Source: Catenulispora sp. MAP5-51
Lineage (GTDB): Bacteria; Actinomycetota; Actinomycetes; Streptomycetales; Catenulisporaceae
Reading direction: 5' to 3'
DNA length: 64,000 bases
Assembly: GCF_041261205.1 (NCBI RefSeq)
Contig: NZ_JBGCCH010000002.1
Coordinates: forward strand, 682,001-746,000
Numbering within the stretch: the stretch's first letter is position 1; every line of letters starts with the position of its first letter. Under the pieces are notes generated by a model. The model was not told where the DNA came from, searched no databases, and saw nothing but the letters and a program-made list of their open reading frames with translations. Made by a program: the position numbers and the translations under genes. Positions 50,583 through 60,543 of the stretch are shown here, in pieces.

Positions 50583-50662
50583 ATGACCATCCAGCTGAAC
50601 CACACCATCGTCCCCGCCCGCGACCCGCAGGTCTCCGCACACTTCCTGGCCGGGATCCTGCC
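50583..50662 (+). pseudogene. truncated VOC/glyoxalase-type gene
   Basis: The first 27 codons read M-T-I-Q-L-N-H-T-I-V-P-A-R-D and S-A-H-F-L-A-G-I-L, the standard N-terminus of small VOC (glyoxalase/bleomycin-resistance) proteins, with AAGGAGAG upstream. Homology then stops abruptly near 50663 and the frame runs into unrelated Arg/Pro-rich sequence. VOC proteins need about 120 residues, so this is a 5' fragment. Confidence 0.75.
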
Positions 50663-50993
50663 CAGAGTGTGGCACGACCCGAGGCGTCGTCGAGTCACGA
50701 CTCCAGGGCCCGGCCGTGGACCCGGAAGAGCGGCCGGTCGTGGAACGAGAACGGCTGGAGGCCGAACTGCGGCTCCGCAGAGGCCAAGCTCGTCCGGCAA
50801 CGCTCAGCCGCAGAGAAAGCTCAGCAGGCTGTCGACGACCTCCGGACTCGATTAAGCGTGCGCCACGGATGATGACTACCACACCGAGCAGTCCCAAATG
50901 CTGGCCGTCCTCGCAGACACCTAGCGCCGCGCACCTTGGGGCCTCATCACTATTCTGCCGCCCTGATTAACCTGGTCGTGACCAGACCAGGCA
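50663..50993. other. junction region with decayed coding fragments
   Basis: No intact gene. The frames contain a charged helical piece (V-E-R-E-R-L-E-A-E-L-R-L-R, then A-E-A-K-L-V-R-Q-R-S-A-A-E-K-A-Q-Q in another frame) that reads like the coiled-coil tail of a recombinase- or transposase-type protein with a frameshift. The region separates the VOC fragment from the pRiA4b ORF-3 gene and marks the left edge of the accessory region. Confidence 0.4.
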
Positions 50994-52289
50994 TCAGCCG
51001 CGCCCACGCGTGCCGCGTGTGATCCAGTCCGCGGCGACCCGGCGGTTGGCCGCGTCCACATCGAAGGCCGCCGGATCGAACTGTGCGGCGTGCTCGATCC
51101 CGAGCCAGTCCAGCATCTCCTGGTGATCTGCGGCGCCCGGGTCCGCCAGGGTCTCACGCAGGTCGCGGTAGCCCCAGACGCCGCCGCAGTCCTCCGGCGG
51201 GCAGGCCGCAGCCCCGTCAACACAACGCGGGTAGACGACGCCGGGCTCGGCAGTCACCACAACCTCTACAAGAATCTCGTGCTCCCAGCCGTCGCCGAAG
51301 TCGTATTCGTAGCCGATAACCGCTCCCGCCCCAGCGATGTCGGCCAGGCCCACAGCGTCCTCAGCGACGATGTCCTCGTCGAAGTCCGGATCCCGCCGGC
51401 CATAACGCGCTTCGCCCACGGTGAACAGGTGCAGATGCGAGTCGGTCCAGCCCAGCGCGGCCTGAAGAACGCCGTGCAGCCGATCCAGCCGGATCGACGC
51501 GGGCACCAGCACCCGCCGCCACACCTGCGGATCGGTGTCATCGAGGCTCACGCGCAGTTGGAACAGTTCCTCGCCGGGTTCGGCACCACCGCGCCCGGCC
51601 ATGACGGCGCCCAGCACCGCCCCAGACAACCGGACACGTCCTTCGTCGCCCTCAACCGCTCCCAGAGCACGCCACAGCGCCACGATGTGCGCCGTGTCAC
51701 GAGCAGTGATCTCGCGCAGCCGCGCCAGCCGCTCCCGGTCCAGATGATCCAGGACGAACCGCGGGGCGAGATCCGCCCACACAGCGCTCTGCAACGCCTC
51801 GAGCAGTACCCAGTCCCCGGAACCGAGCAGGAACCTCAGCTCCGTACACGTCTCCCGGAAAGCCAACAGCACCAGCGATGTGATCCACCCGGAAGGCACG
51901 ACCGCATCCACCGAAATCTTGACGAACGCCTCAAACAACGCCGCGCGCAACCGCTCCGACTCGGACAGCAGCTTCGCGTTCTTCTTCACCGGCACCAGCT
52001 TGCCGCCCACGACACGGACGAGCCCGGCGGCCTTGGCCCACTCGACCAACAGGTTCAGCCTCGGCAACTCCTGGCTGGACTTGGTGCGGAACACCCGATC
52101 ACCGATCACCGGATCGATCCGGTCGGCAGTGCCCAGCAACGGCACGAGCACACGAGCGTCACCCAAGGTGAGCCGCCCGGTCTGGGTCAGCTTGCGCCCG
52201 GCGCCGATCCACTCCACGAGCGCCTGGACCTGCTCCAGCAGAGCCAAACCGGTCTCATCCGGCCCCGCGGCATCTCTCACTCCGCTCAC
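50994..52289 (-). CDS. plasmid pRiA4b ORF-3 family protein
   Basis: A 431-residue protein starting at GTG 52289. The N-terminal 230 residues are a helical region (LLEQVQALVEWIGAGRKLTQ at the start). The C-terminal PRiA4_ORF3 domain, about 245-400, has Q-L-R-V-S-L-D-D-T-D-P-Q-V-W-R-R, L-G-W-T-D-S-H-L-H-L-F, Y-D-F-G-D-G-W-E-H and a Cys-rich loop. The family is named after a plasmid ORF and is frequent near mobile elements, with no established activity. A longer frame to 52739 overlaps the divergent gene and is rejected. Confidence 0.88.
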   Translation of the reverse strand: MSGVRDAAGPDETGLALLEQVQALVEWIGAGRKLTQTGRLTLGDARVLVPLLGTADRIDPVIGDRVFRTKSSQELPRLNLLVEWAKAAGLVRVVGGKLVPVKKNAKLLSESERLRAALFEAFVKISVDAVVPSGWITSLVLLAFRETCTELRFLLGSGDWVLLEALQSAVWADLAPRFVLDHLDRERLARLREITARDTAHIVALWRALGAVEGDEGRVRLSGAVLGAVMAGRGGAEPGEELFQLRVSLDDTDPQVWRRVLVPASIRLDRLHGVLQAALGWTDSHLHLFTVGEARYGRRDPDFDEDIVAEDAVGLADIAGAGAVIGYEYDFGDGWEHEILVEVVVTAEPGVVYPRCVDGAAACPPEDCGGVWGYRDLRETLADPGAADHQEMLDWLGIEHAAQFDPAAFDVDAANRRVAADWITRGTRGRG

Positions 52290-53100: not shown

Positions 53101-53432
53101 CAGCGGCACCACGCTGGCACCACGCAGAGCGACCTCCTGAAGCAGCACCCTACATTTTCAGTTAACCGCCAAAGCTTGGGCGTGCATTAGCTGCGATCTT
53201 GGAATCCGCTCCGGCTCGACCACCCGCGCCAACCGCTGACAGATCAGCCCATGACCATGAAATGCCGCCATCACCAGCGGTTTCCTAGAACGGCCACAGC
53301 GTAGCCACCGCCGTGGGTCTCGTTCCTCAGGCCACGGTCGGGCCCGGGCAGCCCGAACCATCAGCTCCGCTCCATGCCGCCGACCTGCGGCGGAGCAATC
53401 GAACATAATTCGAAAACACGTTCGCAGGGTGC

Positions 53433-53541
53433 GTGGGACAGGAAACGTATTCGAGCACTCGGGCCCTGACATGCTGCGGAGCGCCTTGGGATAGGCGCTC
53501 TGCAACCGCTTTAGACGTGCATCAGCCGCGACCATCGAGAC
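53433..53541. repeat. left copy of a diverged direct repeat with conserved hairpin
   Basis: About 109 bases align with 60156-60264 in the same orientation. The ends are well conserved, for example GCATCAGCCGCGACCA followed by CGAGAC at the right. Inside is a hairpin (53475-53504) with stem TGC-GGAGCGCC/GGCGCTCT-GCA. Weaker similarity extends left to about 53160. A minus-strand frame starting M-V-A-A-D-A-R crosses both copies but looks decayed. Confidence 0.7.
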
Positions 53542-53755
53542 CTCATGCCCAATGTTGATCTACTTCGCGGATGGATGGCTTCACGGGCACTCGGCCAGGA
53601 GCATGCAGAGGCGAAGCATGCGACAGGCCTCTACCGCGGCGGACGAGACTCGAAGTCGCATTCTCAAGGTGGCCGTCTTCCACAGGATTGCCAGGCTATC
53701 CACAGGTCCTACGACCCGTGTTGCACCCACGGGATCGATAACTGACAGTCGAACC

Positions 53756-54772
53756 ATGAAAACCCCACACAAGCACACTTGTGCTGACAAATCCTACACG
53801 GCTGCCGTCAATACTCTGATCAGATTGCAAGATCACGTGGTGGCTCATCGCCAACTCGTCGAACTGGGATTCCCCGAGCGGGTCATTCGGCAGCGCACGA
53901 CGACGGGCGGGCCGTGGCAGCGCATCCTCCCCTCGACCTACTTGACGCAGACGGGGCCACCCTCGCGGCACCAACTGATGCGCTCCGCGCTGCTCTACTG
54001 CGGATCGGACCGCACCTGGGGCGCACTGCTCACGGGGACCGCGGCACTGGAGTTGTACGGTGTGCGACGGTTGCCACGGCAGAGCCGGATCCATGTGCTC
54101 GTGCCCTGCGACAGTCTGCGCACGAGCACAGGCCACGCCGTCATCGAGCGGACACCCCGGATGCCCGGCCAGGTCACACGGAGTGGAATGGCCTGCACTC
54201 CTTTCATACGGGCGTTGATTGATGCGGCACGCCGGTCGGAGGACGTCGACGAGGTACGGGCCGTGTTGGCTGAAGCGGTGCAACGGCGATTCTGCACGCC
54301 GGCCCAGATCCTTGAGGAGGTCGCCAACGGGCCCATGCGTCGCTCGCGGCTGGCGCACCAGGTGGCGTTGGAGATCGGCGATGGCGTCCGTTCGCCGGCC
54401 GAGGCATGGATGCGCGATGCGCTCATCCGGTTCCGCGTGCCTGCACCCCGATGGAACGCGGTCCTGCGCGACTCCGCGACCGCAAGAATAGTCGCGGTTC
54501 CCGATGCGCTGTGGGTTGGCAGCTGCCTCGTCGCGGAGGTCGACTCGAGGGACTACCATCTGAGCCCGGAAGACTGGCGTCGGACCCAACAACGGCACGC
54601 GATGCTCACGGCACTCGGATTCGTGGTTCTTCACTTCGCACCAACCCGAATCAAGGAGGATCCCGAGGCGGTCTGTGTCCAAGTCACGGCCGCTCTCGCA
54701 GCCAACGCGGGTCGCCCCTGGCCGCGTGGCATCACGGTGACCCGCGCTGATGGCGTCGCGAACGGGACGTAG
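53756..54772 (+). CDS. Vsr/DUF559-like nuclease with N-terminal AbiEi-type region
   Basis: A 338-residue protein. The N-terminal part (LIRLQDHVVAHRQLVELGF, then V-I-R-Q-R-T) resembles the winged-helix start of AbiEi-type antitoxins. The C-terminal 100 residues have the PD-(D/E)XK pattern of the DUF559/Vsr fold: V-P-D-A-L-W near 262, V-A-E-V-D-S-R-D-Y-H, then R-R-T-Q-Q-R-H-A-M-L-T-A-L-G-F-V-V-L-H-F. Codon use is less GC-biased than in the neighbours, suggesting transfer. No clear ribosome site precedes the ATG. Confidence 0.75.
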   Translation: MKTPHKHTCADKSYTAAVNTLIRLQDHVVAHRQLVELGFPERVIRQRTTTGGPWQRILPSTYLTQTGPPSRHQLMRSALLYCGSDRTWGALLTGTAALELYGVRRLPRQSRIHVLVPCDSLRTSTGHAVIERTPRMPGQVTRSGMACTPFIRALIDAARRSEDVDEVRAVLAEAVQRRFCTPAQILEEVANGPMRRSRLAHQVALEIGDGVRSPAEAWMRDALIRFRVPAPRWNAVLRDSATARIVAVPDALWVGSCLVAEVDSRDYHLSPEDWRRTQQRHAMLTALGFVVLHFAPTRIKEDPEAVCVQVTAALAANAGRPWPRGITVTRADGVANGT

Positions 54773-54966
54773 TCCTGCCAACGATCCACAGGCCGCCTGG
54801 GACCACACAACAAAGCAGCCGCCATGCCACCGCCTCGGACCGGCCGACCTCCCGGCCAGGGAGTGGATCGGGACCGGGGCCACCGCCTGACAGCCCTCAG
54901 TGCCAGCGTCTACAACAGGCGCCGTTCCGGCCCGGCTCAGGCCGTCGAACTGTGCCGCCCCATGCC

Positions 54967-56487
54967 TCAACCCGCTTGCCCGTAGAGCGTTGCGAGGCCG
55001 ACCAGCAGGATCCCGCCTGACGACTGTTGAGCGGCGGCCAGGGCTTCATCGGTGAATCCCGAGGTGCTGAACAGCCCGAGTCTCGCCGTCGACGCGTCGT
55101 GACCGGAGGCGGTGAGCAGGCTTCGAACGTGCTCCAAACGTTCCAGTTGGGCTGTTCCGGGTCGGCGATCGCGGGACTCGGCTTCACCGATGAAGGCGAT
55201 CGGCGCCCCCGTAGTGCGTGGTCTGGCTCCCCGGGCCAGGGACAGGATGTCGATCTCGTGTCCGGTCTTGTGCTCGCGGCATGGGACGACGGTCTGCCCG
55301 GTGACACCGACGTCGAGTCCGGCGTCGTCGGCGGCGTGCCGTCTCACCCATTCTGCGGCGAGGGTCTCGAAGTGCGGTCCCAGGATCTTCGACTCCACGG
55401 TGTGCGCGGATTCAGCCCAGACCCGACGGGCCCGGCCGGCTTCCAAGTCGGCCTGGTAGGGCTCGGTGACCAGGTGGTGCAGGCGGATGACCGGGTCGTT
55501 GACAGCGATGACCGGTCGCCGTTCCAACAGCAGGTCCTGGGCCCGGTCCAGGAACCCGGCCGATTCCAGCATGGCGAGTTGGTGGGTCAGCGAGGTCGCG
55601 GGCCGTTCGAGCAGGCCGCCGATCTTCGTCGGCGAGCTCTCGCCTGCCGCTACGACCGCGAGGATGGAGCTGTACAAAGCGGCGTCGCGGATGCGCGGGT
55701 CTTCGTGGACGACCCGGTTGGCCTCGTCGAACAGTGGAGCCGACGGCCGCAGGACGTTACGGGCGATCCACTCGGCGACAGCGTCAGGTGTTTCCCCGAC
55801 GTGCGGATCGGGGGCGAGTTCGCGGTAGCCGGGCGTGCCTCCGATCAGGGCGTTGTGCAGGAACGCGGTCTGCAGATCCTCGATCTGCCAGAAGGCGCGC
55901 GCCTCGCGGTGGCCGAACGGCTTCACCTTCAGCTCCAGGGCACCGCGTCCGCGCAGCGCCTTGGTCCCGGACAGCAGGCCGGACATGACCGAGATCGCCG
56001 AGCCGCACAGGACCAGCCGCAAAGGCGTGGGCTGCCCGAGCCCGCCGGGGCCGAGCCGGTCGTAAAGCCCTTGGATGATCGAGGGCAGGCCCTGGGTTTC
56101 GCTGGCGAGATACGGGAACTCGTCCAGGACGAGCAGCGGCGGGACGCCGTCGCGCACACTTCGGCGCGTCATAAACTCCGTGGTGCTGTCCAGTGCGTGC
56201 TCCCAGTTCCGGAAGCCCAGCGCTCCGGCTGGCAACTGCTGCCATTCAGCGACGGAGTCGGCGAACCGCCGCAGCGACACCGCCTCGGCCTGCTCGGTCG
56301 CCAAATGGTAGAGGCCCCCGCAGGCTTCGGCCAGCCGCCGCAGCAGGTATGACTTGCCCTGACGGCGGCGGCCGTAGACCACAGCGATCCGCAACCCGGG
56401 TAGCGATGAAGCGGCGAAGTCCGCAAGATCGGCCCACTCCGCGTCCCGACCGAAGACGTCCTGCGGTTTGGCAAGTGCGGACACCAC
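54967..56487 (-). CDS. archaeal-type AAA ATPase with C-terminal nuclease-like domain
   Basis: A 506-residue protein starting at GTG. Walker A is G-R-R-R-Q-G-K-S at 39-46 and Walker B P-P-L-L-V-L-D-E-F near 118. A winged helix (about 290-340) follows, then a DUF234-like region with G-H-E-I-D-I-L and F-I-G-E-A-E-S. The last motif normally reads E-C-K in the nuclease-like fold, so the catalytic lysine seems missing. CTAAGGAG precedes the start, and TATACT with TTAGCC upstream look like a promoter. An 88-bp fragment of a second copy lies at 60456. Confidence 0.85.
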   Translation of the reverse strand: MVSALAKPQDVFGRDAEWADLADFAASSLPGLRIAVVYGRRRQGKSYLLRRLAEACGGLYHLATEQAEAVSLRRFADSVAEWQQLPAGALGFRNWEHALDSTTEFMTRRSVRDGVPPLLVLDEFPYLASETQGLPSIIQGLYDRLGPGGLGQPTPLRLVLCGSAISVMSGLLSGTKALRGRGALELKVKPFGHREARAFWQIEDLQTAFLHNALIGGTPGYRELAPDPHVGETPDAVAEWIARNVLRPSAPLFDEANRVVHEDPRIRDAALYSSILAVVAAGESSPTKIGGLLERPATSLTHQLAMLESAGFLDRAQDLLLERRPVIAVNDPVIRLHHLVTEPYQADLEAGRARRVWAESAHTVESKILGPHFETLAAEWVRRHAADDAGLDVGVTGQTVVPCREHKTGHEIDILSLARGARPRTTGAPIAFIGEAESRDRRPGTAQLERLEHVRSLLTASGHDASTARLGLFSTSGFTDEALAAAQQSSGGILLVGLATLYGQAG

Positions 56488-56910
56488 TCCGGCTCCTTAG
56501 CTCGACTACACTTACACTAAGTATACTCAGGCTAACCTGACAAAGCCCGCCGGCTCGCCGACAGAATCGGCCAGCCTTGAGTTCGGGGGTGTGATCCCCG
56601 CCGCAATAGTCACAGCCACGTGCACCGTGCGTGACCCAGTCAGCGGTGATCCGGCGGACACGATGGCCCAGGCGGCGCAGCTCGCCCTGCATGTCGACGC
56701 GACGGCTCGGGCGGGGCGGACGGACGGCCCACAGCGCTGTTCCGCACTGAATCGTTACCAGCGTCGGCGCGGCACCACCGGCGTCGCCGAGCTCCGGACG
56801 CGCCGCCATGGTGATCCGCGCTCAGTGGCCGGACCTTGCAGACCGTGATCAGGTCACGGAACCGCTCTGAACCGTCCGTCCGGCTCACCTCCCGATGGGA
56901 GGATGTATCA
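56488..56910. other. 423-base gap with possible integrase remnant
   Basis: There is no intact gene. On the minus strand around 56630-56700 a frame reads D-M-Q-G-E-L-R-R-L-G-H-R-V, very like the I-Q-G-E-L-x-x-L-G-H-x-V helix of IS3/IS481-type transposases, followed by unrelated sequence. The ATPase promoter (AT-rich, about 56500-56540) is at the left end. Confidence 0.45.
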
Positions 56911-58278
56911 GTGGGCAACCAAAACCGGCAACGAAGATCGGCCAAGAAGCAGAAGGCGGACCGGCGCCGCGAGCAGGCGCGGTTTGGTGACTTCGACCTG
57001 TTCGGCAAGGCCCAGAATCTCGCTGTCGAAGCCCTGGAACACCTTGCATGCCCCGATACAGAAGCATGTGGCGGTCGAGGCGCTCGTGCTCTCGGCGTGC
57101 TGGTTGATGAGACCCGTGGCGTCGGATGGTGCCGCGCGGTGGACACCGTTCTGTTCGGTCTCCACATGGATGTGTTGGGGAAGAAGTGCTGGCCGGACGG
57201 CTGGCAGCCGGCCGATCTGGCGCGCGTCGCGGACCGTGAGCTTGGCGCCGCGGCCCGCCGCGGTGTGACCGACATGATGGCGGCCGAGCTGCGTCGCTAC
57301 GCCCCGACCAGCATCGACGACGCCTGGCACGACCAGCTCGCCGAGCTGCAGGCCGCGGTCTGGTGGTCGACGGACGCCGAATACGTCCGGGAATCTGCCG
57401 CGGCTCGCCGGACGACCCGGTCGGCGACGGTCGAGCTGCTGGTGCGGATGTTACGGCTGCTGGACGCGCTACCCGCGGTGGAAGTGCTCACCCCGTTACC
57501 GGGGGCCGCGCACGGCACCGGCGGCTCTTCGGCGGGGTCGGGCAGCGCGGTCGATGAGAAGCTGCTCGCACGGGTCCGCGCGTTGCTGGCCAAGGCCGAG
57601 GGCACCAACTACGAAGCCGAAGCCGAGACGTTCACCGCCGCCGCCCAGGCCATGATGGCGCGCCACAACATCGACGAGGCGATGCTGCGCAGCCGCCAGA
57701 GCGCCGGCCGTTCGGGCAGGTTCGCCGGTGACGGGCCCGGGGGTATCCGGCTCGGCGTGGACAACCCCTACGCCGAGCCCAAGGCAATCCTTCTGCAGCA
57801 GGTGGCCGAAGCGAACCGGTGCCGTACGGTCTGGAGCAGGGACCTGGGTTTCAGCACCGTCATCGGGTTCCGTTCCGACACCGCGTGGGTGTCGCTGCTG
57901 TACACATCGCTGCTCCTGCAGGCGAGCACGGCGATGGCCCGGGCTGGCACGAAGACCTCGAAGTCCGGCGTCTCGCGCACCCGCGCGTTCCGCGCGTCGT
58001 TCCTGGAGTCCTTCGCCGTCCGCATCGGCGAACGGCTGCGCGACACCACCGCACATGCACAGGAGGATGCCGTCACTGCCAACGGGCCCGACTTGCTCCC
58101 CGTACTCGCCTCACAGGAGCGGGCCGTGGAAGACGAGGTCAGCCGCATCTTCCCCGACATCAGCCGAAGCGTACGCTCGGGACGCCGATGGGACCTCGAA
58201 GGCTGGCATGCCGGACGGGCCGCCGCCGATCTCGCCGATTTGGCCCGCGGCAACGCCATCGGCGACGGAGCCGCGTAG
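56911..58278 (+). CDS. DUF2786-domain protein
   Basis: A 455-residue protein starting at GTG 56911, with GGGAGG eight bases upstream. The N-terminus is basic (QNRQRRSAKKQKADRRR). The DUF2786 domain lies at about 205-245 (R-V-R-A-L-L-A-K-A-E-G-T, A-E-T-F-T-A-A-A-Q-A-M-M-A-R-H-N-I-D). The C-terminal region has F-R-x-S-F-L-E-S-F-A-V-R-I-G-E-R-L and ends with a W-x-x-G-R-x-A-A-D helix typical of longer DUF2786 proteins. These occur in phages and mobile regions; function is unknown. The next gene begins 150 bases downstream on the same strand. Confidence 0.85.
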   Translation: MGNQNRQRRSAKKQKADRRREQARFGDFDLFGKAQNLAVEALEHLACPDTEACGGRGARALGVLVDETRGVGWCRAVDTVLFGLHMDVLGKKCWPDGWQPADLARVADRELGAAARRGVTDMMAAELRRYAPTSIDDAWHDQLAELQAAVWWSTDAEYVRESAAARRTTRSATVELLVRMLRLLDALPAVEVLTPLPGAAHGTGGSSAGSGSAVDEKLLARVRALLAKAEGTNYEAEAETFTAAAQAMMARHNIDEAMLRSRQSAGRSGRFAGDGPGGIRLGVDNPYAEPKAILLQQVAEANRCRTVWSRDLGFSTVIGFRSDTAWVSLLYTSLLLQASTAMARAGTKTSKSGVSRTRAFRASFLESFAVRIGERLRDTTAHAQEDAVTANGPDLLPVLASQERAVEDEVSRIFPDISRSVRSGRRWDLEGWHAGRAAADLADLARGNAIGDGAA

Positions 58279-58427
58279 AGCCGAGCCACACGGGGCCGCG
58301 CAGTGCCGGTCGGCAACAGCGCGGGCTGGCCGGACCCGTCGGCACCGCGGGTCGGACTCCGGTGCCCTACGGCCCAGGTCCCCCAATCCGCCCGCAGGTC
58401 GCCGCGGCGCTCTCTACGATTGAACCC

Positions 58428-59855
58428 GTGCCAGCGTCCAAGCCACGTAAGAAGAAGCCCGCCCGCACCGCGTCCAGATCGGGGAACCCCGCGACCCGGC
58501 GCGCCGAGCGGGAGTCCGCCGAGGAGCGCCGGGTGTCGCGCGCAGCGTGGCAGCACTCGGACAGCCCGTTCGGCGAGTACCGACGCCAGCTCGACCGGCA
58601 ACGGATGAAGAACGCGTCGTACGACGCCGAACCGATCGTCGCCGACCTGTTGAGTCTCGACGGGACGGTGGACCAGGTCGAGGACGCCCTGTGCCGCATG
58701 CTGGGCGAAACGCTCGCAGAGCAGGACCAGGTGAGCGATGCGGCACTGGCGCGTTCACAGGAGGTACTCGGCGCGTACAGTCCGGACCAGTTGCTCCAGG
58801 CCGTGACCGACATCGCGGTCCGGGAAGCCCGCCGGGCCGTCGCGGTCGACGGCGACCCGCAGACGCGGGATGCGGCCTGGCAGATGCAGCTGGCGATTTG
58901 CCGCATCACGCCGTATCCGGCCGCCGAGCTCACCATCGCGGCCGGCGACCAGCTGCGCGCCATGGCCACACCACGCCCGGACGGAGACACAACCGCCACA
59001 CCACAAGGCCCAGCCCTGTGGTGCCGCGACGCCTACGGGACCCGGTTCGCCATCACGGCGCCGTTCGCCACCGACGCCAACACGCCCACGGCAGGCAGCC
59101 CCGCGCGCTGGTACCTGTGGGACATCGACGCCTGCGGCTCCGATGCCTACACCGTCGGCGCCGGCTACTTTCCCGACGCCGACGCTGCCCTGGCCGCCTG
59201 GCGCGCCGCCGCCGGGACACGTGCCACCGCCGGAGCAGTCCTCGAACCGGTCACCGACCCCTGCCTGGCCGCGCGTTTGCTGCCGGGGCTGCCTGCGTTC
59301 TTCCACCCGGGCGGGGAGAACCAGGAGCAGTACGCGGAGTTTCACCGCTGTCGCCGCCTTGCCCAGGCGCTGCGGAGCTCGAAGTACTTCGACGGAAGCG
59401 CGACCGGTTCCGGTCCCGCAAGCCCTCCGGCGCCGGAGGACCGCGAGTGGTTCGACCAGCAGGATTGGGATGGCAAGGACCAGTGGATCGGCGAGTTCGC
59501 CGCTTGGCGCGCGATGCACCGGCCCGGAGCACGCGCCATCCCGGAGGACTTCCCGATCGTCGAAGGCGCCGATCCCCTCACCGAGAACGAGCTGTACCGT
59601 GAGTTGCTCTCGAGCTGGTTCACCGGCGAGTTTCCAGAATTCGCCTACTGCTGTTCCCCACACCGGATCGCGCTGCTCCACGACCACCTGACGGATTTCT
59701 ACGACGACGACTTCGCGCAAGTCATCACCGGCCTTGTCCCGGACCTCGTCGCCTGGCTCTCCGAGCAGGCCACCCTCCCCGCCGACCTGGTACCGCAACC
59801 TGCTGCCGACACCGCCCGCGACCACCTCAATCCCCTGGACCGGGTTCAGGAATAG
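58428..59855 (+). CDS. hypothetical protein paired with DUF2786 gene
   Basis: A 475-residue protein starting at GTG 58428. A basic N-terminus (KPRKKKPARTASRSG) precedes an acidic, Trp-rich body with W-Y-L-W-D-I-D-A-C-G-S-D and E-W-F-D-Q-Q-D-W-D-G-K-D-Q-W. No known motif is visible. The basic tail, as in its DUF2786 neighbour, could bind nucleic acid. The two genes probably form one operon inside the repeat-bracketed block. Confidence 0.65.
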   Translation: MPASKPRKKKPARTASRSGNPATRRAERESAEERRVSRAAWQHSDSPFGEYRRQLDRQRMKNASYDAEPIVADLLSLDGTVDQVEDALCRMLGETLAEQDQVSDAALARSQEVLGAYSPDQLLQAVTDIAVREARRAVAVDGDPQTRDAAWQMQLAICRITPYPAAELTIAAGDQLRAMATPRPDGDTTATPQGPALWCRDAYGTRFAITAPFATDANTPTAGSPARWYLWDIDACGSDAYTVGAGYFPDADAALAAWRAAAGTRATAGAVLEPVTDPCLAARLLPGLPAFFHPGGENQEQYAEFHRCRRLAQALRSSKYFDGSATGSGPASPPAPEDREWFDQQDWDGKDQWIGEFAAWRAMHRPGARAIPEDFPIVEGADPLTENELYRELLSSWFTGEFPEFAYCCSPHRIALLHDHLTDFYDDDFAQVITGLVPDLVAWLSEQATLPADLVPQPAADTARDHLNPLDRVQE

Positions 59856-60155
59856 CGACCACCCGCCGGAGCCGCCAGTGCATCGCAGTCCAACTCGTCT
59901 GCTACCGGTGTTGTCACGGTGACAGCCGCCGAGATGACCGCGATGCCGGGTACCGGATCGTCCACGCAATCTGTCCGCGTATTAGCCGAGATCTTGGTAC
60001 CAGGCCCTGACACGCCCGCCCATCGACAAGAAGCCCGATCGTCACCTCGACCAAGGAAAACAGCGATCTACCTGCGGAGCAGCTGTTACGCAGCATACCG
60101 GAACCCGGTATGGACCATGTAAACCAAGGCCACCGTAAGGCCCTATAGGCCTTGC

Positions 60156-60264
60156 GTGGGATAGGAAATTGTGTTCGAGTATTCATGCCCTGACACGTGG
60201 TGGAGCGCCCGAATCGGGCGCTCCACCGCTGATTCGGACGGGCATCAGCCGCGACCACCGAGAC
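60156..60264. repeat. right copy of the direct repeat with conserved hairpin
   Basis: This copy aligns with 53433-53541. Its hairpin (60199-60227) is a perfect 14-bp stem, GGTGGAGCGCCCGA/TCGGGCGCTCCACC. Relative to the left copy, outer pairs change together (TGC/GCA to GGT/ACC), so pairing is kept while sequence differs. Weaker similarity continues left to about 59960. Confidence 0.7.
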
Positions 60265-60455
60265 TCGTTGTTCCCTCTTGATCCGGGGACGAGCCGGATC
60301 GTGGCCGTGCCTCGACGGCGTATCCGAAGTTGTCGTCGTCCGCCAGACTGCACACGCAGGCGTTGTCGAGTCTGGTGACCGTCCTGAACTTGGCCGACGA
60401 GGGCCGGATCAAGTGCGGCGAGTAGACCAAGCGTCCGAGCGCGGCCAGCGTGGCC
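60265..60455 (+). other. gene graveyard: C-terminal remnant of an unknown gene
   Basis: A plus-strand frame ending at the TAG 60423-60425 reads S-S-L-V-T-V-L-N-L-A-D-E-G-R-I-K-C-G-E, which looks like the end of a helical protein with no matching upstream part. It directly precedes the ATPase fragment. No intact gene is seen from 59856 to 60674. Confidence 0.35.
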
Positions 60456-60543
60456 GATTCCACCGTGTGCGCGGATTCGGCCCAGACCCGCAGGGCCCGG
60501 CCGGCTTCCAGGTCGGCGTGATAGGGCTCGGTGACCAGGTGGT
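60456..60543 (-). pseudogene. 88-bp fragment of a second archaeal-type ATPase gene
   Basis: This stretch matches 55391-55478 inside the ATPase gene at about 90 percent by eye. Translated on the minus strand it reads H-L-V-T-E-P-Y-H-A-D-L-E-A-G-R-A, then R-V-W-A-E-S-A-H-T-V-E-S, as in the intact protein. Similarity stops sharply on both sides. Confidence 0.8.

What the first reader, a model, noticed from the sequence alone, without database searches (positions are those of the whole stretch)
53433..60264. Direct repeats with a covarying hairpin bracket a 6.6-kb block
Two diverged copies of an about 109-bp sequence, in the same orientation, flank a nuclease, an ATPase, a DUF2786 protein and a partner gene. 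Both fold a hairpin at the same place. The core GGAGCGCC/GGCGCTC is shared, while the outer pairs differ together (TGC/GCA in one, GGT/ACC in the other), which implies selection on structure. They could be ends of an unrecognised mobile element (IS605-like ends carry hairpins), a structured RNA, or scars of recombination.
Basis: partly seen in the sequence, partly recalled or inferred. Interest (0 to 1): 0.75.

Follow-up and report, generated by a model that had tools for sequence, protein, structure and literature searches.

The report
Old attachment sites of stacked islands
The two hairpin repeats are worn attachment sites left where mobile DNA islands were inserted one behind another next to a transfer-RNA gene; this is a familiar way for bacterial genomes to collect genes such as anti-phage defences, with one unusual feature, a conserved hairpin inside the attachment site.

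Summary
Copies A (53433-53541) and B (60157-60264) are same-strand, about 75% identical (E about 1e-12) and share a hairpin whose paired bases change together. They are not IS605-like ends and not the two ends of one element. Each copy is the right-hand half (P' arm) of an attachment site for islands that integrate at the 3' end of a tRNA-Lys gene, which lies outside the window at C2:769827-769900. A third copy, C (C2:759809), lies between B and that tRNA. Each site has a worn tRNA-Lys 3' end, a hairpin, an arm-type motif on the right, and the same motif again on the left. Relatives (Catenulispora) give four more copies. One (G002) ends a 30-kb island with an exact 20-base tRNA-Lys repeat, and G009 carries the matching empty site. 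Integrase remnants sit beside tRNA-Lys in G000 and G002. So the 6.6-kb block is an integrase-less, attachment-site-flanked islet (like a CIME) in a stack of three or four, carrying AbiEi-like and ATPase defence-type genes. Seven copies were found, all in one genus. The hairpin's role is unproven: it is strong in four copies, weak in one and broken in two. I favour a terminator or insulator beside the site.

The parts
53433..53541 (+). Copy A: right half (P' arm plus worn core) of an old tRNA-Lys attachment site, right end of islet E1
   Evidence: 75% identical to B; seven-copy family
60157..60264 (+). Copy B: the same for the next island, E2, which runs on beyond the window to C2:759.8 kb
53427..53446 (-). 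Core remnant at A: GTTTCCTGTCCCACGCACCC, 4 mismatches to the tRNA-Lys 3' end GGTTCGAGTCCCACGCGCCC
   Evidence: best match in 47 kb apart from the tRNA itself, same strand; 18/26 over the longer core, background 1.5e-5
60154..60165 (-). Core remnant at B (CCTATCCCACGC), strongly decayed
   Evidence: alignment with other copies; on its own not significant
53473..53506 (.). Hairpin of copy A
60197..60229 (.). Hairpin of copy B, 13-15 bp stem
53508..53533 (-). Arm-type motif, right (P') side of site A
60231..60256 (-). Arm-type motif, right (P') side of site B
53173..53198 (-). Arm-type motif, left (P) side of site A, about 234 bp from the core; score 17.1, above every score in 469,200 background positions
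   Evidence: motif model built from right-side sites only
59968..59993 (-). Arm-type motif, left (P) side of site B, about 163 bp from the core; score 20.4, above all background
53447..60153 (.). Islet E1: block between the two attachment sites, no integrase
53756..54772 (+). AbiEi-like protein with DUF559/MTES_1575-like nuclease end (weak, sub-threshold Pfam); 92% identical DNA in the G008 tRNA-Lys contig
54967..56487 (-). ATPase_2-type AAA protein, matches defence candidate PDC-S27
56911..58278 (+). DUF2786/DUF7168 protein
58428..59855 (+). Partner gene, no family match
50980..51005 (-). Probable right-arm remnant of a further islet, E0 (50.98-53.43 kb), with a different short hairpin beside it; suggestive only
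   Evidence: motif score 11.4; hairpin CCTGGTC/GACCAGG
50583..50660 (+). Broken VOC-like gene at the far edge of the array; intact in G008, where a repeat copy begins about 40 bp after its stop codon

Best explanation
A and B are relics of attachment sites made by successive integrations of related tyrosine-integrase islands at the 3' end of a tRNA-Lys gene. Each integration leaves a site whose left side belongs to one island and whose right side belongs to the next. Right side, read along the tRNA: arm-type motif, hairpin, conserved TATTCGAA stretch, then the tRNA-Lys 3' end as core. Left side: the same arm-type motif again, about 145-235 bp after the core, then (where it survives) the integrase. 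The 6.6-kb block is therefore an integrase-less islet (CIME-like) that could once be moved by a related element's integrase acting on its flanking sites. Shown by sequence: repeat family, core, arms, empty site, integrase remnants. Inferred: that the motif is where integrase binds, and the order of events. Hairpin role, inferred and weaker (about 0.45): a terminator or insulator at the island's end, keeping transcription out of the site.
For: Seven copies by covariance model, E 2e-15 to 2e-22, all Catenulispora, none convincing elsewhere in 392 order genomes. The G002 copy is followed by an exact 20-base tRNA-Lys 3' end and lies 30.3 kb from the G002 tRNA-Lys. Empty site: G009 tRNA-Lys is followed directly by the flank found beyond the G002 distal repeat, 83% then 95% identity. 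In G000 the tRNA-Lys faces copies C, B and A; its exact end occurs once and the next-best same-strand match in 47 kb is at A. Taking out a 1.74-kb IS with 63-bp inverted repeats joins C's arm to GTGGGTTAAAGGCCCCACGCG. A motif model trained on right arms finds a left arm in the same orientation at +142 to +169 (A: +234) at seven island sites (weakly at G009), and not at tRNA-Lys of G001, G004, G006 nor on chromosomal flanks. Integrase tail about 210 bp from tRNA-Lys in G000 and about 180 bp in G002; full integrase in G008, further ones in G009 and G002 C112. The MFS locus is 2.4-5 kb from tRNA-Lys in G001, G004, G006 but about 38 kb away in G000.
Against: The core at B is so decayed that it is not significant alone (11/26). 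No integrase lies inside the 6.6-kb block, so its own mobility is not shown. The G002 C112 copy has no recognisable tRNA-Lys core. The G009 C223 element sits at a non-tRNA site. The G009 empty site is read across two contig ends overlapping by about 9 bases. Left-arm scores at G002, G009 and the G000 tRNA site are modest one by one. The hairpin lacks a T-run, so a terminator role is unproven.
Confidence: 0.88

Rival explanations
1. The hairpin is itself part of the recombination machinery: extruded as a cruciform or folded from single-stranded DNA, it is read by the integrase or a directionality factor, like folded attC or CTX-phage attP sites.
For: It lies between arm motif and core at a constant place, and six of 15 pairs changed on both sides; it folds well as DNA in B, C and G002 C112 and moderately in A.
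Against: Not folded in the G002 attR next to the intact core, nor well in G008. Absent from the attP of a related Streptomyces plasmid-form element, so not general to this integrase family.
Confidence: 0.17
2. A and B are ends of an IS200/IS605-like or other transposon whose transposase was lost.
For: Hairpins near borders; direct, not inverted, repeats.
Against: tRNA-Lys core, left arms and integrase remnants all point to a tyrosine integrase; no Y1 transposase in the block. Copies sit at different islands with different cargo.
Confidence: 0.03
3. A structured RNA (leader or small RNA) conserved upstream of a gene family.
For: Covariation on one helix.
Against: No Rfam family; the genes beside the seven copies differ; the conserved flanks are explained by core and arm motif.
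Confidence: 0.04
4. Integron-like cassette array with attC hairpins.
For: Hairpins separating gene blocks in one orientation.
Against: The integrase relates to actinomycete element integrases at about 41%; the core is a tRNA end; the spacing is kilobases with several genes per block.
Confidence: 0.01

Closest known systems
Tandem arrays of actinomycete integrative elements in tRNA genes (e.g. Fean5518/Fean5534 in a Frankia tRNA-Lys, PMC3218068)
   Same: Tyrosine integrase, tRNA-Lys 3' end as core, several elements stacked head to tail; integrase about 41% identical to Streptomyces plasmid-form elements that carry SpdB and FtsK-type transfer genes
   Different: Here most members have lost integrase and transfer genes, and the right end has a conserved hairpin that the Streptomyces relative lacks
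CIMEs and accretion islands of the ICESt1 family and of streptococci (reviewed in PMC5704250)
   Same: Integrase-less blocks that keep both attachment sites and accumulate by accretion
   Different: Different host and integrase family; sites here are more decayed; movement not tested
Stem-loops at ICE ends that limit transcription, ICEKp1 (PMC13023037)
   Same: Stem-loop within the end of a tRNA-integrated element
   Different: In ICEKp1 the loops lie in the integrase 5'-UTR by the tRNA; here the hairpin is at the opposite end, and the integrase reads towards the tRNA

Membership tests
tRNA-integrating tyrosine-recombinase island | Direct repeat of the tRNA 3' end at both ends | tested here: met
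   Exact 20-base repeat in G002; 16/20 at A in G000
tRNA-integrating tyrosine-recombinase island | Empty site in a relative | tested here: met
   G009 against G002, read across a contig junction
tRNA-integrating tyrosine-recombinase island | Integrase gene beside an attachment site | tested here: met
   Remnants by tRNA-Lys in G000 and G002; none within the 6.6-kb block itself
tRNA-integrating tyrosine-recombinase island | Integrase arm-type sites on both sides of the core | tested here: met
   Sequence motif only; binding not testable
AICE | FtsK-type transfer protein, replication gene and integrase in one element | tested here: not met
   Block E1 has none of them; the G002 island has an FtsK/SpoIIIE protein
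CIME | Keeps both attachment sites, lacks integrase and transfer genes | tested here: met
CIME | Can be excised or mobilised in cis | not testable with these tools
   Needs experiment
IS200/IS605 | Y1 transposase (TnpA) with hairpin ends | tested here: not met
   No Y1 transposase match among E0/E1 proteins or the E2/E3 proteins scanned
Rfam RNA family | Score above gathering threshold | tested here: not met

The most novel reading that the evidence does not exclude
The hairpin is an active, structure-selected part of a tyrosine-integrase attachment site, set between arm site and core, so that folding (cruciform or single strand) or RNA termination controls recombination; an attachment-site layout not described for tRNA-integrating elements, as far as I know.
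Probability: 0.2. Interest if true: 0.62.

Novelty: new member of a known kind. Interest (0 to 1): 0.4.

Why it matters
It turns two puzzling repeats into a record of island stacking at one tRNA gene in Catenulispora, shows that a defence-type gene block was delivered this way, and supplies seven natural variants of an attachment site with a covarying hairpin, which makes a simple test of hairpin function in site-specific recombination or insulation possible.

Tried and rejected
Rfam and tRNA scans of the window gave nothing: the tRNA is 24 kb outside it. An exact pattern scan of GTDB genomes found only C. pinisilvae and three Holophagales contigs, taken as chance and not followed up; viral contigs none. 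Two Streptomyces-family model hits turned out to be GC-rich hairpins without core, integrase or tRNA. G001/G004 weak model hits do not align over the conserved flanks. Flank search for the G009 C223 element: the G002 counterpart lacks a longer 14-kb segment, so it does not give a precise empty site. No second tRNA-Lys core was found next to the G008 integrase. No solved structure is close to the integrase by sequence. No literature on this island in Catenulispora was found.

Full report
Observation. The hairpin is strong in B and weaker in A. A sensitive search of the same genome gave a third copy, C, at C2:759809, again on the same strand; the window is C2:682001-746000. Two more were found in G009 and G008, and a covariance model added two in G002. 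A second model from seven copies found exactly these seven in 392 genomes of the order; two further hits in the order are hairpins without the rest. G009's contig C223 has the length of the Catenulispora pinisilvae NH11 contig found by pattern, so the genus is Catenulispora.

What it is. The G002 copy (C257:34663-34753, minus) adjoins GGTTCGAGTCCCACGCGCCC, the exact 3' end of tRNA-Lys, which also occurs at the tRNA-Lys gene itself in the relatives. In the window's own genome that tRNA-Lys is at C2:769827-769900, minus, so its 3' end faces C, B and A in turn. The best other same-strand match to its last 20 bases in the 47 kb examined is at copy A (16/20). G008's copy keeps 19/26 of the longer core and A 18/26, both rare in background (6e-6 and 1.5e-5 per position), while B, C and G009 are too decayed to count alone. 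Copy C is split by a 1.74-kb IS with 63-bp perfect inverted repeats; joining its flanks brings the arm back next to GTGGGTTAAAGGCCCCACGCG.

Island evidence. In G002 the tRNA-Lys and the distal repeat bound 30.3 kb. In G009 the tRNA-Lys is followed at once by the sequence that in G002 lies beyond the distal repeat (83% over the first 316 bases, 95% over the next 1.6 kb), read over two contig ends that overlap by about nine bases. An MFS gene cluster that lies 2.4-5 kb from tRNA-Lys in G001, G004 and G006 is about 38 kb away in the window's genome. An integrase C-terminal remnant lies about 210 bp from tRNA-Lys in G000 and about 180 bp in G002, reading towards the tRNA; G008 has a full-length integrase followed by a helix-turn-helix (excisionase-like) gene and an N6/N4 methylase, and the methylase is kept next to the remnant in G000 (65% identity). 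The G008 integrase is about 41% identical to those of Streptomyces plasmid-form integrative elements with SpdB and FtsK-type genes.

Arm sites. A 26-bp motif, GATCGCGGCTAATACGCGCCCAAATC in its fullest form, lies inside every right end. A weight matrix made only from these right-side sites was used on the 300 bp on the other side of each core. It found the motif in the same orientation at +142 to +169 (A: +234) at A, B, C, and tRNA-Lys of G000, G002 and G008, and weakly at +146 in G009 C223; at A and B the scores exceed all 469,200 background positions. It was absent at tRNA-Lys of G001, G004 and G006 and on the chromosomal side of the G002 and G008 sites. This is the expected pattern of P and P' arm sites and gives the order E3 (C to tRNA), E2 (B to C), E1 (A to B, the reported block) and probably E0 (51.0-53.4 kb).

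The hairpin. It sits between the right arm motif and the core. Pairing is kept in 87% of cells; six of 15 pairs have changes on both sides (2.8 expected). It is present in A, B, C and G002 C112, weak in G009, lost in G008 and in the G002 attR with the intact core. A related Streptomyces attP has no such right-side hairpin. It has no T-run and is not called as an intrinsic terminator. I think insulation of the site from transcription is most likely; a direct role in recombination is possible.

Cargo. E1 carries an AbiEi-like protein, an AAA ATPase matching candidate defence family PDC-S27, a DUF2786/DUF7168 protein and an unknown partner. E3 carries a LeoA-like dynamin and a methylase.

Known context. 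Stacking of integrative elements in tRNA genes, including tRNA-Lys in Frankia, is described (PMC3218068), as are integrase-less CIMEs and accretion (PMC5704250). Stem-loops at the other end of ICEKp1 limit transcription (PMC13023037). This case is a new member of that kind, with the hairpin as its unusual part.

Noticed in passing
window 60455-60543: An 89-bp relic, 91% identical to part of the ATPase gene (55390-55478), lies just inside the right end of E2: a sister cargo gene was probably once there.
   Followed up: partly
L034:11059-12799: Insertion sequence with DDE_5 transposase (IS701-like) and 63-bp perfect inverted repeats inserted within attachment site C.
   Followed up: yes
L036/L134, G009 C223:87.3-96.3 kb: A related element with a partly deleted integrase sits at a non-tRNA site beside TauE/DUF1634-like genes: probable use of a secondary site.
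   Followed up: partly
L121, G002 C112: A repeat copy directly follows an integrase gene (attP-like order) about 6 kb from a cas3 (type I-E-like) gene and beside a Tad/Flp-type gene cluster.
   Followed up: no
L113:8495-13126: The G002 island carries an RHS-repeat protein with a T7SS-type signal domain.
   Followed up: no
L034:13347-15449: Dynamin-like protein matching LeoA/LeoBC defence models in island E3.
   Followed up: no
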